From Lodderomyces elongisporus (lineage: Eukaryota; Ascomycota; Pichiomycetes; Serinales; Debaryomycetaceae): a DNA stretch of 64,000 nucleotides. The notes beneath the pieces were generated by a model that had not been told where the DNA came from, did not search any database, and worked only from the letters and a program-made list of their open reading frames with translations. The stretch is from assembly GCF_030384665.1 (NCBI RefSeq), contig NC_083674.1, positions 2,666,001 through 2,730,000 on the forward strand. The letters are read 5' to 3'. Below are positions 55,301 through 63,516 of this stretch, piece after piece (the stretch's first letter is position 1; each line of letters begins with the position of its first letter). A program made the position numbers and the translations under genes.

Positions 55301-57276
55301 ATGTCTTTACAAGAGAACGGTATTAGCCGTGAAGATAAAGACGGCCTCTTTGCCAATTCAAGCAGTGCTTCCAGTATCAACAAGAAAACGGCAGACCCTT
55401 CCTTCAATTCAGAAAATGTTGAATCACAAAGAGAAGAAGGCGAGCACGGCAATATCCTCTCGCAATATACTGAAAAGCAGGTTATGCAAATGGGAAGAAA
55501 CTATGCACTTAAACATGACTTGGATCCAGTCTTGTTTGCCAATGCTGCAGCACTAGCACGTGCACCCAGTGCCTTCAACTCTATGCCATTTCTTTCAGAT
55601 GAGGAAAAGCAAGGCTTGTACCTTGAAGCCACCAAGAAATGGCATATACCACGTAAGCTTTTTGCGTGTATCGCATTGGGTAGTATGGCTGCAGTCATTC
55701 AAGGTATGGACGAGACTGTTGTTAATGGTGCCACATTGTTCTATCCCAGAGCAATGGGGATTGACCAAATGGCAAACCCAGATTTACTTGAAGGATTAAT
55801 CAATTCAGCACCCTATCTTTGTGCCTCATGTATTGCATGTTGGCAAACAGATTTGTGGAATCGTTACTTGGGCAGAAAATGGACTATTTTTTGGACGTGT
55901 GTTATCTCAGCAGTCACGTGTATCTGGCAAGGTTTTGTTTCTGTTCATTGGTGGCACTTGTTCTTGGCTCGTTTCTTTTTAGGATTTGGCATTGGTATCA
56001 AGTCAGCAACTGTACCTGTTTACTGTGCAGAATGTTCACCAAAACATATTAGAGGTGCCTTGGTCATGACTTGGCAGTTTTTCACAGCTTTTGGAGTATG
56101 TTTTCTAAGCTCTATTTTTTTTATTATTATTATTGGTTTATGAATACTAACAATTACCCTCCCCATTAGATTATGCTTGGTTATGTTGCATGCTTGGCGT
56201 TTTACCATGTTCCAGATAAGAGTTTTGGCTCTGGATTGAACTGGAGACTTATGCTTGGACTGGCTTGTCTTCCAGCAATCTTTATTCTTTTCCAAGTCCC
56301 CTTTGTTCCTGAATCTCCACGTTGGTTGATGGGTAAAGGTCGTCATAGAGAAGCATTTGAGAGTTTAGAGCAGATGAGATACGAGAGAATAGCAGCAGCT
56401 AGAGACTGTTTCTACCAATACGTCTTACTTCAAGAAGAAGAAGGTTACGATGTGCCAACTTGGAAGAGAGTTATTGAGATGTTCACCATTAGAAGAAATA
56501 GGAATGCAGTGATTGGATCATGGATTGTGATGTTTATGCAACAATTTTGTGGTATCAATGTTATTGCATACTATTCCTCGTCGATTTTCCTTAATGCTGG
56601 TTTCAGTGAAATCTCAGCACTCTTGTCTTCATGGGGTTTCGGTATGATTAATTTTACATTTGCCATTCCAGCTTTTTTCACAATTGATAGGTTTGGACGT
56701 CGTAACTTGTTGTTATTCGCTTTCCCATGTATGTGTGCCATGTTATTGGTTGCTGGTTTTGGTTTTTTGATCAATGATACTCAGGGTAAATTGGGAATGG
56801 TTACCACAGGTGTTTATTTGTTTACTTGTTTCTACAGTTCTTCAGAAGGACCAGTGCCATTTGCCTACTCTGCCGAAGCATTCCCATTGTATATTCGTGA
56901 CTTGGGTATGGCATGGGCTACTGCAACGTGTTGGTTCTTTAATTTTATGTTAGCTTTTACGTGGCCAAGAATGATGAGGGCAATGTCACCAACTGGTGCT
57001 TTTGGTTTTTATGCAGCATGGAATGCTATTGGATTCTTTTTGGTGTTGTGGTTCTTGCCAGAAACCAAGAATTTGACCTTGGAGGAGTTGGACGATGTGT
57101 TTGCTGTGCCCATGTACAAGCATGCAATCTATCGTACGAGGACTTTTTTGAATGGTGTTTCAAAGCGTGTGTTGCACAAGGATGTGAAGGACCCACCACC
57201 TATTTATTCACACCAGAGAATGGCAGTTACCAACCCAGAATGGAATGAAAAAGTTGAAGTTGACCATGAGGAGTGA
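55301..57276 (+). CDS. MFS sugar/polyol transporter A (Hgt19-like), one 74-nt intron
   Basis: Spliced from 55301-56095 and 56170-57276, the product has 633 aa. A soluble N-terminus of about 115 residues (MGRNYALKHDLDP, NSMPFLSDEEK) precedes twelve membrane segments of the sugar porter family. Motifs are LGRKW, PESPRWLMGKGRH, QQFCGINVIAYY, DRFGRRN, PFAYSAEAFP and PETKNLTLEELD. The N-terminal extension and GMDETVVNGATLFYP resemble fungal myo-inositol/glucose carriers such as C. albicans Hgt19. The substrate is not known from sequence. Codon 296 is CTG where the family has Ser (NWRLMLG-x-AC). It is about 80-90 percent or more identical to gene B across most of its length. Confidence 0.88.
56096..56169 (+). 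other. Intron of transporter A (74 nt)
   Basis: Donor GTATGT (56096), branch point TACTAAC (56145-56151) and acceptor TAG at 56167-56169. Phase 0, between TAFG and IMLGY. Gene B is continuous at this position, which confirms both boundaries. Confidence 0.95.
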
Positions 57277-57302
57277 GCAGAGTGAATTTTTTTTGAGAAA
57301 AA

Positions 57303-57314
57303 GGGGGGGGGGGG
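57303..57314 (+). repeat. G12 homopolymer
   Basis: Twelve G residues 26 bp after the transporter A stop codon. Confidence 0.9.
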
Positions 57315-57917
57315 AAAAAGAAAAGGAGATGCTGGCCATAGTTGTGTGGTTTTCCTTTTCTTTTCTATAACGAATATATATATATATCAATTTCTATAGT
57401 CTGTGTAGTAATATAAGCTAAGGAAGTTTTGACAGTAATACAAGAATAAAGAATTGTATAAAATTCGTGTAGAAGCTATACGAGATCCTTGAGCAAAGTA
57501 GTTTGTTATAGTTATAGTTGCATCCATTGTTATTGTTAATTTTTTTGCTTTTAGTTCCTACTTTTCTTTTCTTAGCTGTACTTTTTTTGTTCTATTTAAT
57601 TATTGTCCAATATTTTAAAATTTGAGGTTTTTTTTTTGTTTTTTTGTTTTTTTTTTGTTTTTTTCTTTATAAACAATTTGATTTAAAACACAAATTAAAG
57701 AATAGCTGAAAGAGGAGTCAATTACGATTTAGTTTTCTGTTGGTCTGTTTCTATTCTATTTTTCGGAGTAGGTGGGGAAACAAATAAAAAAAATAAAAAA
57801 TAAATAAATTAACCAAAAGTAGAATTGTGCAGTTGAATAAGCGCCAAAAAAATAAAGAGGAAAAGTTGTAAAACCATTGAAGTAAGTGATTATTCAGAGA
57901 CAATAAAAAAGTAGAGT

Positions 57918-57930
57918 GGGGGGGGGGGGG
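57918..57930 (+). repeat. G13 homopolymer
   Basis: Thirteen G residues in the inter-transporter gap. Confidence 0.9.
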
Positions 57931-60900
57931 AAAGAAGGCTATCAATCTTTTATTTTAAGCTTACTTCTTTATTCTAATCAATTGTTCTTCCAAAGAAACA
58001 AAACAAAAAAAAAAAGAAAAAGAGAGCAGTGTGGTATTTCTTCTACTTGTTTCTATTTCTCTAAAACGTATTCTTTAAAGTATATAATTGGTTGTTGGGT
58101 TAGAAGTTCTTTATTACTTAAGAATGGGTTAATTTGTAAAAAGTGGTTTGGGTTTATATGTTGAAGTTGTGTTCTTCCGAGAGTAGTCTTGCAAAATACT
58201 GGTTTGTGTCTTTTTTCTTAAAACTCCACACCAATAAGACACTGAGCATACTACTCGAGTAAGTGTGTTTGGAATCCCTATTGTGTTTTGTTAGTCCTTA
58301 TATATGTTATCTTCTGTTGGTTATTTCAATGTTGACTCAAAGTATTGTAATGGGAAATTTTAAGAGTGTTTCGGAGGAACATAGTGGTAATACACGATAT
58401 GAAGATGTACCTGTGTCTTGATGATGAGCTTTGCAACCAAACGTTTTTTTCTTTATTTTAAATTTTCTATTACTTTGTATTCAGGTACATTTTGTTGTTG
58501 TTAAGGTATGAAAACAAAAGACATAGTGATTAGAAAGTTTCTCTTGTGCTGTTGTCGTTATATCCTTTCTATTGTTTTATCTCCGTGTATTTGTATTTGT
58601 ATTTGTATGTGTGTGTGTGTGTGTGGGTAAGGCGGAGTGTGAGGCGGAGTGTATATGGTATTGCATTAATAAAGTTTTACAATGTATATATATGTATATT
58701 ACCAGCACTAGTAGTAGAAGCATAGTATATACTATTAATTGTATTTAACTAGTAAATGTGATACAAAAAATAAAAGAGAGAGAGACAAAGAGAGAGAAAG
58801 AGAGAAGTATGAAAACAATAAGGACAATGTAGATGACTCTCAACCGTAAAACTGATAAATAATCACAACGCGTCTTGACTCAATTGTTTTTTACGTGTAT
58901 TGGGGATGTGGAGAGAAGGGAGGGTGAAGAGTGAAGGGTGAACGGGATAAGGGGATAAGAGGGAGATGGTCACGTATATTCTTTCTTATTGTCTCTTCCC
59001 CTCCTTCTTCTTTATTCTTTATTCCTTTTTTTTTTTGTTTAATTGTTTAATAGAGAGAATAAAAAGAGTTAAGAGATATCTATGACGTCACGTATATATA
59101 TATCTATACACTATAGGAGATAGAGAGTAAGAAAGAAAGAGAGAAAAAGGGTAAAAAGAAAATTATACAAAAATTAAGGATTAATTCTGTCACCAACTTC
59201 ACTTTGTCACAAAACCATTTTTCACTATAATAGAATAATAGAATATTTCCCCTTCTTCTACTATAATATATACAATATGTAATAACATTTATATTATACG
59301 GAAAAAAAGGAAAAGCGGGGTTCCTTTTGTGGAACTTATACTGTTGTATTTTTTTTCTGACTCTCACACGACGATTGTTTTACATACACTATACTGGAGA
59401 TTGGAAGTAAAGAAATTGTTAGAGGCAGAGCATAAAAGAAATACAAGGTTGAGAAGTGTACAATATTGAAATGAAACAAAACAACAAGAATTTGGGAGAG
59501 CCAAAAAATGGTGAAGGAAGAAGAGTGGGGGGAGGGGATAAAGAGAAAAAAGTGAAGTCAATAGAGACATTCATTTTAAATATATAAAAAGAAAAGGGCT
59601 AGGCTTTTATCCATTATATGACAGGTTGTTTAAGGTTATGAGATTGGGTCAAGTAGGAACTGGGCTTTAAATAAATAAATATTTTGTCCTATTAAAAAAA
59701 ATTAATTAATGACGTATAGCACAAGTCAACAAATTGTGGACAAAAAAAAAAAAGAGAAGCCCTTTATTACCTTACTCATTCTATTATTGTATTATACATG
59801 TATTATGTATTTGACAAAGCAAGAAACTAAAATACTAATACTCCAAGAACAACAAAGAGTATAGTCCCTATATAACCAAGATCCATTTGATTCGTATTTG
59901 CCCATACAAGATTAAAATTAGTAGTAGTATATATAAAAGGTATTCAAGTTGTTTAAGTGGGAAGAACAAACAAATGATGCCAAAAAAAGACCTTTTTTTT
60001 CTTCTACATTTTACTACTTGGCAGGAACAATTTTAAGTTGAAATGTAAATCACCAATAGAATTCCTTTCTTTAATTCATAGACACTCTCTTTTCTTTTCT
60101 TTTCTTTTTTCGCTTTCATTAATCATCTATCTCTCTGTCTACACATATTGTAGCTCTGTTTCCCTCTATATCTTTTTTTTTTTTTTTTTTTTTCATTTTT
60201 TCAATTTTGAGCTGGTGGGGTTGGTGAAAACCGCGCAAGCCTTCTTTTTCGGAGAAGCCTGGTATTCAAAATGCAAACAAGGTTTAAAATAGTACACTGT
60301 ACATAGCAATCTTGATAAAAACCTGCTCATTGTTCCAAATAGCTTTTTCCTCCTCCTCCACCCAAAAAAGACTCAAGATTGAGGTATATTGTACAAATTA
60401 ACAATATCGAAAAGGATAAAAAGGCAAGAAAGAACTAAAGGTTGTTTAAAAGGATAGTATTTGGTTTACAATAATTATACCACTTTATTAATACATAGAT
60501 AGGAGAAAGGAAACAGAAGAAGCCCTATACTTCCCTTATAAAGCAAAGATTACTATCTTTGTTACCATTCACCTACTTCCGTCTTTTCTCTTCCCTTCCC
60601 CCCCACCCCACTTCCCTCCACAAAACGAATGTTTCTGGTATGCAAAAGTGTTATACATACATATATACATACATATACACCCATACATACATAGATTGTA
60701 GTATATTGATTCACGGATCTATTATTTTTTTCTTTGTTTTCTGTTTCCACCAAAATTTTTCCAGTTTATTGTTTTTGTAACTCTTTTTTTCTAAAAATAA
60801 AAAAATAAAATTATTATATGCAGTACATAAGAGAGGTATACTTTCTTAATTTGTTGCAAGTTATGTTTCGGAAACCCCAAAAAATTTAGAAAACAAACAA

Positions 60901-61470
60901 ACAAATAACCCCCCCACCCCCCATCGAAAGTTCATTGAGAATTGCAAACCAAAGACTATACACAGCACTAACACTAACATTAACATTAACATTACCAACA
61001 CTAACAACAACATGCACTGTACATTTGAAACTTGTTATCGCCTGTTTTACTCTCTTTATTTTTGTGTACTCTATTTGTACTTTTTTTTTCCTTTTTTTTT
61101 TATTTATAAATTATACGGCACAATATATCTACAACCTGATCAATAGCAAACAACCAAAGCAAAACATCTTCTATCATTCATTTATTCATACAGAAAGAAA
61201 GAAAGGAAAAACAAATTAATGCATATCCTTCTTCCCTCCCCCCACCCAACCCCCAGCCCATCAATCGAGTTTAGCTCTCGTGCTTTCCAATAAATAAATA
61301 AAAAACTCTGACAGGTGTCACTCTTCCCTCTCTTACCTTCTCCCCTCCCCCCCTCTATATATATAGTCTAATAACTTTCCCACTTCTACCACTTTACTTC
61401 TACTTCTTTACACACCCCCCTCATTGAAAGAATCAACTACAACTTACAAGACAACAATCGAAACTAAATC

Positions 61471-63516
61471 ATGTCTGAGGAAGAAAAGGTTGTTAGCAAC
61501 GACGATGGCCTTTTTGCCAACTCAAGCTCTGCATCAAGCACAAACAAAAAGACAGAGGGCTCTCTCAACTCTGGAAATGACGAGGCTATAAGAGAAGAAG
61601 GAGAACACGGCAATATCCTCTCACAGTATTCAGAAAAACAAACAATGCAAATGGGAAGAAACTATGCCCTCAAATTCGATTTAGACCCCGAACTATTTGC
61701 AAAAGCTGCCGCACTTGCACGTGCACCAACAACATTCAACTCAATGCCATTCCTTTCAGAAGAGGAAAAACAAGGCTTGTACTTTGAAGCAACCAAGAAA
61801 TGGCACATCCCACGTAAGCTTTTTGCATGTATCGCATTGGGCAGTATGGCTGCTATCATCCAAGGTATGGATGAAGCAGTCGTTAATGGAGCTACCTTGT
61901 TCTACCCAAAAGCAATGGGTATCGACCAGATGAAAAACGCAGACTTGATTGAAGGAGTATGTATTTCAAAACAAAACCACCACCACCACCATAACCATAA
62001 CCATATAGGGAAGGGGGTTCTTTTTCCCCTTCCCCCCTTCCCCTCCTCTACTTTTTTTTTTTTTATAAATTACTTATACTAACAAACAACAATTTTTCCC
62101 CTTTTATAGCTTGTTAACTCAGCACCTTATCTCTGTGCCTCATGTATTGCATGTTGGCAATCTGACTTGTGGAATCGTTACTTGGGCAGAAAATGGACTA
62201 TTTTTTGGACATGTGCCATCTCGGCAGCAACATGTATCTGGCAAGGTTTTGTCTCAGTTGACTGGTGGCACTTGTTCTTGGCACGATTCTTTTTAGGATT
62301 TGGTATTGGTATCAAGTCAGCAACCGTACCTGTTTACTGTGCAGAATGTTCACCAAAACATATTAGAGGTGCCTTGACCATGACTTGGCAATTTTTTACC
62401 GCAGTTGGTATTATGCTTGGTTACGTTGCATGTTTAGCCTTTTATTATGTCCCCGACAAGAGTTTTGGCTCTGGATTGAACTGGAGACTTATGCTTGGAC
62501 TGGCTTGTCTTCCAGCAATCTTTATCCTTTTCCAAATTCCATTTGTTCCTGAATCACCACGTTGGTTGATGGGTAAAGGTCGTCATAGAGAAGCATTTGA
62601 GAGTTTAGAGCAGATGAGATACGAGAGAATAGCAGCAGCTAGAGATTGTTTCTACCAATACGTCTTACTTCAAGAAGAAGAAGGTTACGATGTGCCAACT
62701 TGGAAGAGAGTTATTGAGATGTTTACCATTAGAAGAAATAGGAATGCAGTGATTGGATCATGGATTGTGATGTTTATGCAACAATTCTGTGGTATTAATG
62801 TTATTGCATACTATTCCTCGTCGATTTTCCTTAATGCTGGTTTCAGTGAAATCTCAGCACTCTTGTCTTCATGGGGTTTCGGTATGATTAATTTTACATT
62901 TGCCATTCCAGCTTTTTTCACAATTGATAGGTTTGGACGTCGTAACTTGTTGTTATTTGCCTTCCCATGTATGTGTGCCATGTTGTTGGTTGCTGGTTTT
63001 GGATTTTTGATTCACGATACCAATGGTAAATTGGGAATGGTTACCACAGGTGTCTACCTTTTCTCGTGCTTCTACAGTTCCTCAGAAGGACCAGTGCCAT
63101 TTGCCTACTCTGCCGAAGCATTCCCATTGTATATCCGTGACTTGGGTATGGCATGGGCTACTGCAACGTGTTGGTTCTTCAATTTCATTTTGGCATTCAC
63201 TTGGCCAAGAATGATGAAGGCAATGACCTCAACTGGTGCCTTTGGTTTCTATGCAGCATGGAATGCTATTGGATTCTTTTTGGTGTTGTGGTTCTTGCCA
63301 GAAACCAAGAATTTGACCTTGGAGGAGTTGGACGATGTGTTTGCTGTGCCCATGTACAAGCATGCAATCTACCGTACCAGAACATTCTTGAATGGTGTTT
63401 CAAGACACGTATTCCACAAGGATGTGAAGGATCCACCACCTATTTATTCACACCAGAGAATGGCTGTTACCAACCCAGAATGGCACGAAAAGGTTGAAGT
63501 TGAACACGAGGAGTAA
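61471..63516 (+). CDS. MFS sugar/polyol transporter B (paralogue of A), one 153-nt intron
   Basis: Spliced from 61471-61956 and 62110-63516, the product has 630 aa. The domain layout and sugar-porter motifs are those of transporter A, including LGRKW, PESPRWLM, DRFGRRN and PETKNLTLEELD. Differences concentrate in the N-terminal tail and the last periplasmic/TM regions. Codon 293 is CTG at the same Ser position as in A. Its intron is at a different place: after DLIEG, before LVNSAP. Gene A reads straight through that position as LEGLINSAP. Coding starts are 6.17 kb apart and the distal coding parts align at a constant 6240 bp. The substrate is undetermined. Confidence 0.88.
61957..62109 (+). 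other. Intron of transporter B (153 nt)
   Basis: Donor GTATGT (61957), branch point TACTAAC (62077-62083), acceptor TAG at 62107-62109. Phase 0. It contains CCA/CCATAA repeats and a C-rich tract before the branch point. No similarity to the intron of A apart from the splice signals. Confidence 0.95.

What the first reader, a model, noticed from the sequence alone, without database searches (positions are those of the whole stretch)
55301..63516. Two near-identical tandem transporters have single introns at different positions
Transporter A has a phase-0 intron (74 nt) at 56096-56169, and B has a phase-0 intron (153 nt) at 61957-62109. Each gene is uninterrupted where the other has its intron, and both have perfect GTATGT/TACTAAC/TAG signals. 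In an intron-poor yeast this requires either independent loss from a two-intron ancestor or gain after duplication. A single cDNA-type conversion removing one intron from each copy could also explain it. Recent intron gain is rarely documented in this group, so polarity matters.
Basis: partly seen in the sequence, partly recalled or inferred. Interest (0 to 1): 0.75.

Follow-up and report, generated by a model that had tools for sequence, protein, structure and literature searches.

The report
Tandem polyol transporters, different single introns
Two neighbouring sugar-alcohol transporter genes in a yeast each carry one intron at a different place, most likely because each copy gained its own intron after the gene was duplicated, and later copying between the two genes seems to have stopped short of the introns.

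Summary
The genes are HGT19/DhSyl1-type polyol/H+ symporters. "Near-identical" misleads: the pair is a mosaic. The 5' quarter is saturated (dS 1.57), the middle nearly identical (dS 0.11), and a 90-bp island around intron A keeps dS 1.51. So the duplicates are old and both introns predate the last exon conversion. None of 119 relatives that span both sites has an indel at either junction, but the nearest species' DNA could not be read. L. beijingensis reads through both sites but breaks after R288 into V-C, the reading of GTATGT: a probable third intron position. Best reading: independent gains, two of them after a duplication, with conversion stopping near the introns. cDNA-type conversion between copies is not supported. 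Intron gain in Candida, even in a tandem HGT pair, is already in print (PMC2880306, PMC3287387). No RNA evidence was available.

The parts
55301..56095 (+). Transporter A, exon 1
   Evidence: a protein from an unnamed source (P0234, 98% identical) breaks at the same place
56096..56169 (+). Intron A, 74 nt, phase 0, after Gly265 of A (Gly262 in B numbering)
   Evidence: GTATGT, TACTAAC at 56145-56151, TAG; only genome match reported is itself
56170..57276 (+). Transporter A, exon 2
56057..56220 (+). Unconverted island around intron A in copy A (codons 253-282 plus the intron)
   Evidence: dS 1.51 against 0.33 and 0.11 on the two sides; silent differences 13 of 25 codons in columns 252-282; coordinates
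56221..56754 (+). Homogenised (converted) tract in A, codons 283-460
   Evidence: dS 0.11; 10 of 163 silent codons differ
55795..55796 (+). Empty site in A at the position of intron B
   Evidence: GAAGGA|TTAATC uninterrupted
61471..61956 (+). Transporter B, exon 1
   Evidence: P0244
61957..62109 (+). Intron B, 153 nt, phase 0, after Gly162
   Evidence: GTATGT, TACTAAC at 62077-62083, TAG; only genome match reported is itself (152 of 153 letters)
62110..63516 (+). Transporter B, exon 2
   Evidence: Sugar_tr PF00083
62371..62460 (+). Counterpart in B of the island around A's intron, with the empty A site at 62409|62410
62461..62994 (+). Converted tract in B
57277..61470 (.). 4.2 kb intergenic region; no ATG-started ORF of 70 aa or more found, no Rfam family, no tRNA

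Best explanation
One intronless HGT19-type polyol/H+ symporter gene was duplicated in tandem on the L. elongisporus lineage after its split from L. beijingensis. Each copy then gained one spliceosomal intron at its own site (after G262 and after G162, B numbering), and the L. beijingensis orthologue gained another after R288. Later gene conversion homogenised the exons but stopped short of the introns, leaving about 80-90 bp of old divergence around intron A and ending (by eye) about 19 codons downstream of intron B. Shown: the two gene structures, the mosaic, the island, A+B as sisters, and uninterrupted relatives in the sources read. Inferred: splicing, the L. beijingensis intron, the order of events, and that the intron heterology itself stopped conversion. 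The source of the inserted DNA is unknown; no copy was found in the genome.
For: Gene models. At site A 119 of 119 relatives (513-660 aa) have no indel within about 10 residues; at site B 119 of 119 run through the junction, 33 of them differing in loop length upstream of it. D. hansenii DhSyl1 was cloned from genomic DNA as an ORF (PMC3913770 passages). L. beijingensis P0235 is collinear with both sites and then reads ...GLNWR|VCIT-stop; no 1- or 2-base insertion or deletion right after R288 of the conserved RLMLG can give V-C. A+B are sisters at 100/99, also on residues 1-184; AU rejects B+L. beijingensis (p 0.0009) and A+L. beijingensis (p 0.0007). dS 1.57 / 0.33 / 1.51 (island) / 0.11 / 0.38 along the gene. 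Crude odds from published gain and loss counts favour post-duplication gains about 44:1 over gain-then-reciprocal-loss and about 460:1 over a two-intron ancestor.
Against: No DNA of any relative could be read. The nearest species (C. orthopsilosis, C. metapsilosis, C. oxycetoniae, C. theae) are known only as annotated proteins, from which introns may have been removed. The set of 119 is biased to intronless genes where the caller ignores introns. L. beijingensis as next relative of A+B has only 80/83 support, none on residues 1-184, and over residues 40-184 C. orthopsilosis is as near to A and B (118 and 116 of 145) as L. beijingensis is (111 and 114 of 145). The downstream L. beijingensis model starts at residue 316, although a Met at 290 is expected if exon 2 begins at 289. 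In more distant, mostly unnamed relatives the frame often breaks near site A: 23 of 57 printed N-side ends lie at 253-264 (among them P0234, which is A itself, and P0237 and P0239 of Hyphopichia), and P0261 and P0311 break exactly at 262, though not into V. Losses dominate in print: 70 against 30, and of four intron differences between C. orthopsilosis and C. parapsilosis three are losses, one of them also in L. elongisporus, and none a definite gain (PMC3338533 passages). The island is exceptional if sites are independent (p < 1e-5) but less so under circular shifts (14 of 825), and another diverged patch (13 per 90 nt) lies nearby. Old conversion in the 5' part could make the duplication look younger than it is. 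The odds assume uniform rates.
Confidence: 0.6

Rival explanations
1. Both introns were gained on the L. elongisporus stem before the duplication, and each copy then lost a different one.
For: Would also leave the outgroups intronless; losses outnumber gains in the published Candida count, 70 to 30.
Against: Two extra events; about 44 times less likely on the crude rates. No trace of cDNA-type exchange next to either site.
Confidence: 0.17
2. The introns are ancestral in the wider clade and were lost many times (reciprocal loss from a two- or three-intron ancestor).
For: More distant relatives have frame breaks near site A; near sister species were seen only as annotated proteins; losses are the commoner event in print.
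Against: At least six losses even within A, B and L. beijingensis for three introns. All 119 relatives examined run through both junctions, and 88 of these clusters include a source (lgn, ena, jgi) taken to be intron-unaware. Among the 57 N-side fragments printed, only the L. elongisporus pieces P0244 and P0234 break into V at 162 or 262.
Confidence: 0.14
3. A cDNA of one copy recombined with the other, removing one intron from each.
For: Gene conversion between the copies clearly occurred (run of 51 silent-identical codons, reached in 0 of 10000 shuffles).
Against: Such conversion would homogenise the sequence across each empty site. Instead dS is 1.51 around site A, and 16 of 90 nt differ around site B.
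Confidence: 0.04
4. One or both are not spliced efficiently, so a copy makes a truncated protein or is regulated by intron retention.
For: No RNA data seen; introns that can stay unspliced are known in Candida TFB3 (PMC3338533 passages).
Against: Canonical signals; the spliced frames look constrained (dN 0.046 against dS 0.48 between A and B over the gene).
Confidence: 0.05

Closest known systems
C. albicans HGT13 intron gain in the HGT12/HGT13 tandem pair (PMC2880306; passages read)
   Same: Sugar-transporter family, tandem duplicates, one copy with an intron absent from homologues, same clade
   Different: There one copy gained one intron; here each copy has its own at a different site, and L. 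beijingensis probably has a third
Intron gains and losses in C. parapsilosis and relatives (PMC3287387; section 6 read whole, passages elsewhere)
   Same: Lineage-specific introns without a detectable donor
   Different: Events in orthologues of four other species; 'elongisporus' has 0 occurrences in the main text
DhSyl1/DhSyl2 of D. hansenii (PMC3913770; passages read)
   Same: Related polyol/H+ symporters (P0031 = DEHA2C05896p, 67% identical to B); two characterised genes with neighbouring locus numbers (DEHA2C05896g, DEHA2C05918g)
   Different: The paper treats them as plain ORFs cloned from genomic DNA (0 occurrences of 'intron')
Parallel intron gains in Daphnia pulex (PMC4202315; passages read)
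   Same: Repeated gain in the same gene
   Different: There at nearly the same site, population-level and very young; here different sites and old
Structurally heterogeneous duplicates escaping gene conversion (PMC3449122; passages and the start of one figure legend seen)
   Same: A structural difference limits homogenisation between copies
   Different: There a partial duplicate in C. elegans; here an intron in otherwise collinear copies

Membership tests
Spliceosomal (GT-AG, U2-type yeast) intron | 5' splice site, branch site and 3' splice site in order | tested here: met
   GTATGT, TACTAAC, TAG in both
Spliceosomal (GT-AG, U2-type yeast) intron | Removal restores a conserved reading frame | tested here: met
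   633 and 630 aa proteins collinear with relatives at both sites
Spliceosomal (GT-AG, U2-type yeast) intron | Spliced RNA observed | not testable with these tools
   No reads available; SRA runs named in PMC10586162
HGT19/DhSyl polyol symporters | Close relationship at sequence level | tested here: met
   78% to C. orthopsilosis Hgt19, 67% to DEHA2C05896p; TIGR00879 299 bits against cut-off 237.8
HGT19/DhSyl polyol symporters | Transport of polyols with protons | not testable with these tools
   Measured for the D. hansenii relative (PMC3913770 passages)
Gained (not retained) intron | Absent from outgroups at the same position | tested here: inconclusive
   None of 119 relatives has an indel at either junction, but sister-species DNA was not read
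Introner or transposed intron | Near-identical copies elsewhere in the genome | tested here: not met
   Only self-matches; the tool skips simple repeats and very common words
cDNA-mediated intron loss by the sister copy | Homogenised sequence across the empty site | tested here: not met
   Empty sites lie in diverged sequence; an event older than saturation is not excluded
Gene conversion between paralogues | Runs of identity beyond chance in otherwise diverged copies | tested here: met
   Run of 51 silent-identical codons, reached in 0 of 10000 shuffles; run of 37, p 0.0066; the next runs (26, 23, 20) p 0.13, 0.27, 0.52

The most novel reading that the evidence does not exclude
The HGT19 gene of the Lodderomyces lineage is an intron-gain hotspot: three introns at three different sites within 127 codons, one in each of three closely related genes, none inherited from the outgroups. 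Each new intron then shields its flanks from gene conversion, so intron gain is a way for tandem duplicates to start escaping homogenisation.
Probability: 0.3. Interest if true: 0.72.

Novelty: new member of a known kind. Interest (0 to 1): 0.5.

Why it matters
Intron gain in intron-poor yeasts is usually inferred one gene at a time. A duplicate pair in which each copy has its own intron, with a probable third position in L. beijingensis, gives an internally controlled case with a relative date (before the last conversions). The mosaic makes a specific question testable: does a newly gained intron stop gene conversion and so help duplicates diverge? It also warns that an annotation can split such genes, as seems to have happened in L. 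beijingensis.

Tried and rejected
Intron donors: each intron was searched against the whole genome and found only itself. Introns A and B share only words of 7-13 nt, T-rich or at the branch box; in the window the longest outside match was a 14-nt ACC repeat of intron B. Frameshift as the cause of the L. beijingensis break: rejected for 1- or 2-base insertions or deletions right after R288. Relatives' DNA: genome contigs gave one distant 27% match in a bacterial record, viral contigs and plasmids gave none. Counting introns genome-wide: the pattern (TACTAAC..TAG) gave 276+347 against 914+732 for the reversed control, so it does not count introns. Shared flanks: no similarity between the upstream flanks, or between the downstream flanks, of A and B; three short cross matches of 29-41 nt between other flank pairs. 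RNA genes in the window: no Rfam match at the gathering threshold and no tRNA. The conversion island was tested both with independent sites and by circular shift; the second is weaker.

Literature: ten searches; one search found no paper. In the listings I saw no paper on introns in HGT19 of Lodderomyces. The L. beijingensis genome paper, known only from a reference list, is not held.
Full report
WHERE IT IS. The window is C2:2666001-2730000 of a genome of 16,086,460 bases in 8 contigs. That total equals the published L. elongisporus NRRL YB-4239 PacBio assembly, GCA_030384665.1 (PMC10586162, part 1 of 2 of the text read). I read the genes with CTG as serine (table 12).

THE OBSERVATION. Intron A is 74 nt (not a multiple of three) and intron B is 153 nt with an in-frame stop, so neither unspliced transcript encodes the full protein. 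Each copy is open at the other's site. The proteins (633 and 630 aa) are collinear with their relatives there. A protein from an unnamed source, presumably another L. elongisporus strain (P0234, 98% identical to A over 92% of the query), also breaks right after the same glycine, into V-C-F-L-S-S-T-F-F where this intron reads V-C-F-L-S-S-I-F-F. So intron A is unlikely to be an assembly error of this strain. Splicing has not been observed here.

WHAT THE GENES ARE. Named relatives include Hgt19 of C. orthopsilosis (78%) and DEHA2C05896p of D. hansenii (67%). B exon 2 matches Sugar_tr and whole B matches TIGR00879. The nearest solved sequences are GlcP, XylE and STP10. The label 'glucose/myo-inositol transporter' is putative. 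The D. hansenii relative was measured to be a sorbitol/mannitol/ribitol/arabitol/galactitol-proton symporter, DhSyl1 (PMC3913770, passages), so a polyol/H+ symporter is the better working name. In the genome, 22 protein matches were scored: four are the two exons of A and of B. The other 18 are distant (24-31% identity) with no stop inside the matched part; introns outside those parts were not looked for.

THE PAIR IS A MOSAIC. By NG86 along the codon alignment: columns 1-165 dS 1.57; 185-252 dS 0.33; 253-282 dS 1.51 (only 20 synonymous sites); 283-460 dS 0.11; 461-633 dS 0.38. Intron B follows column 165 and intron A follows column 265. Silent differences are 55 of 123 codons in columns 1-165 and 13 of 25 in columns 252-282, against 19 of 221 in the rest of 185-460. 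The longest silent-identical run (51 codons, columns 395-447) was not reached in 10,000 shuffles; the second (37) has p 0.0066 and the next three are not significant. If sites are treated as independent, the island around intron A has p < 1e-5. If the whole pattern is shifted round the region, 14 of 825 positions do as well, and the highest 90-nt window elsewhere has 13 differences against 16. The island is therefore real divergence, but its placement on the intron would be a roughly 2% coincidence, not an impossible one. It fits conversion tracts that end on both sides of the intron, which means the difference at site A predates those conversions. By eye a tract also ends about 19 codons downstream of intron B. 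I infer that no recent exchange, cDNA or DNA, crossed either site.

RELATIVES. One search listed 120 of 2968 proteins; I used 119 (P0009 is a piece of B itself), 513-660 aa long. At site A, 119 of 119 have no insertion or deletion within about 10 residues; 88 of these clusters include a source taken to be intron-unaware (lgn, ena, jgi) and 31 are annotation only. At site B, 86 of 119 are clean and 33 of 119 differ in loop length upstream of the junction, none at it. That a caller ignores introns is seen directly only for ena: P0234 reads into intron A, and P0075 starts with M where C. albicans P0003 has L. For lgn and jgi I assume it. P0003 and P0075 match the named C. albicans protein P0133 by eye. 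Because the set is biased towards intronless genes, I searched with pieces short enough to exclude most full-length relatives (120 rows listed of 5856 and of 150) and printed where homology ends: 57 N-side and 73 C-side fragments among 346 proteins. Among the N-side ones, only P0244 and P0234 (the L. elongisporus genes) and P0235 (L. beijingensis) break into V at 162, 262 or 288. Against this reading: 23 of the 57 end at 253-264, mostly unnamed and distant, and P0261 and P0311 end exactly at 262, not into V.

L. BEIJINGENSIS. P0235 runs without a gap through both sites and ends GTGLNWR-VCIT. V-C is what GTNTGY encodes, and no one- or two-base insertion or deletion right after R288 can turn the conserved RLMLG into it. 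I take this as an intron after R288. A doubt remains: the second model begins at residue 316, though a Met at 290 would be expected in exon 2. No second L. beijingensis copy appears among the listed rows. That it is the sister species is recalled, not tested beyond the trees below.

HISTORY. Trees of residues 1-250 (29 rows; the bootstrap had not quite settled) and 1-184 (20 rows) both join A and B at 100/99. L. beijingensis is next in the first (80/83) and unresolved in the second. AU tests on 1-184 reject B+L. beijingensis (p 0.0009) and A+L. beijingensis (p 0.0007). Identity over residues 40-184 is 127 of 145 between A and B; L. beijingensis has 111 of 145 with A and 114 with B, and C. orthopsilosis 118 and 116, so identity alone does not make L. 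beijingensis the nearest. The duplication is thus younger than these splits but old in synonymous terms, unless old conversion in the 5' part has hidden its age. Using 30 gains and 70 losses among 4,869 orthologue sets (PMC3287387, section 6), post-duplication gains come out about 44 times likelier than gain plus reciprocal loss and about 460 times likelier than a two-intron ancestor. These odds are crude: rates are assumed uniform and branch lengths are ignored. In the closer comparison of C. orthopsilosis with C. parapsilosis the four intron differences were three losses and one doubtful gain (PMC3338533 passages), and fungi as a whole lean to loss (PMC8476143 passages).

SOURCE OF THE INTRONS. 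Each intron's only reported match in the genome is itself, so they are not introners or recent intron copies. PMC3287387 reports the same lack of a source for C. parapsilosis gains. At this age the donor is probably beyond recovery. Insertion during break repair is one published mechanism (PMC3443670 passages), but I have no positive evidence for it here.

NOVELTY. [quoted passage not shown] albicans is in print (PMC2880306 passages), and many gains in the clade are too. New here, as far as my ten searches of this library show, are the two-sided case, the probable third position in L. beijingensis, and the conversion island at the intron. The kind of event is known.

Noticed in passing
P0122 (C. 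viswanathii): An annotated 496-aa HGT19 relative starts MHCRLHRQKQEINYDYNLVQTS just before MKNGDLIEG; the head looks like translated intron, hinting at another intron near residue 152.
   Followed up: no
   Followed up: no
   Followed up: no
P0082 (C. metapsilosis) and P0126 (C. verbasci): Annotated proteins missing blocks (between 419 and 498, and between 137 and 227) that relatives have; possibly false introns in automatic annotation.
   Followed up: no
P0033/P0076 (C. jaroonii); DEHA2C05896g/DEHA2C05918g: HGT19-type genes with neighbouring locus numbers occur in other CTG-clade yeasts too, so tandem duplication of this gene may recur.
   Followed up: partly
P0105: A record named Kocuria palustris (a bacterium) holds a 68% identical yeast-type transporter on a 601 kb contig: probably a contaminated assembly.
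   Followed up: no
window 57277-61470: The 4.2 kb between A and B seems long for a yeast; no ATG-started ORF of 70 aa or more, no Rfam match and no tRNA were found in it.
   Followed up: partly
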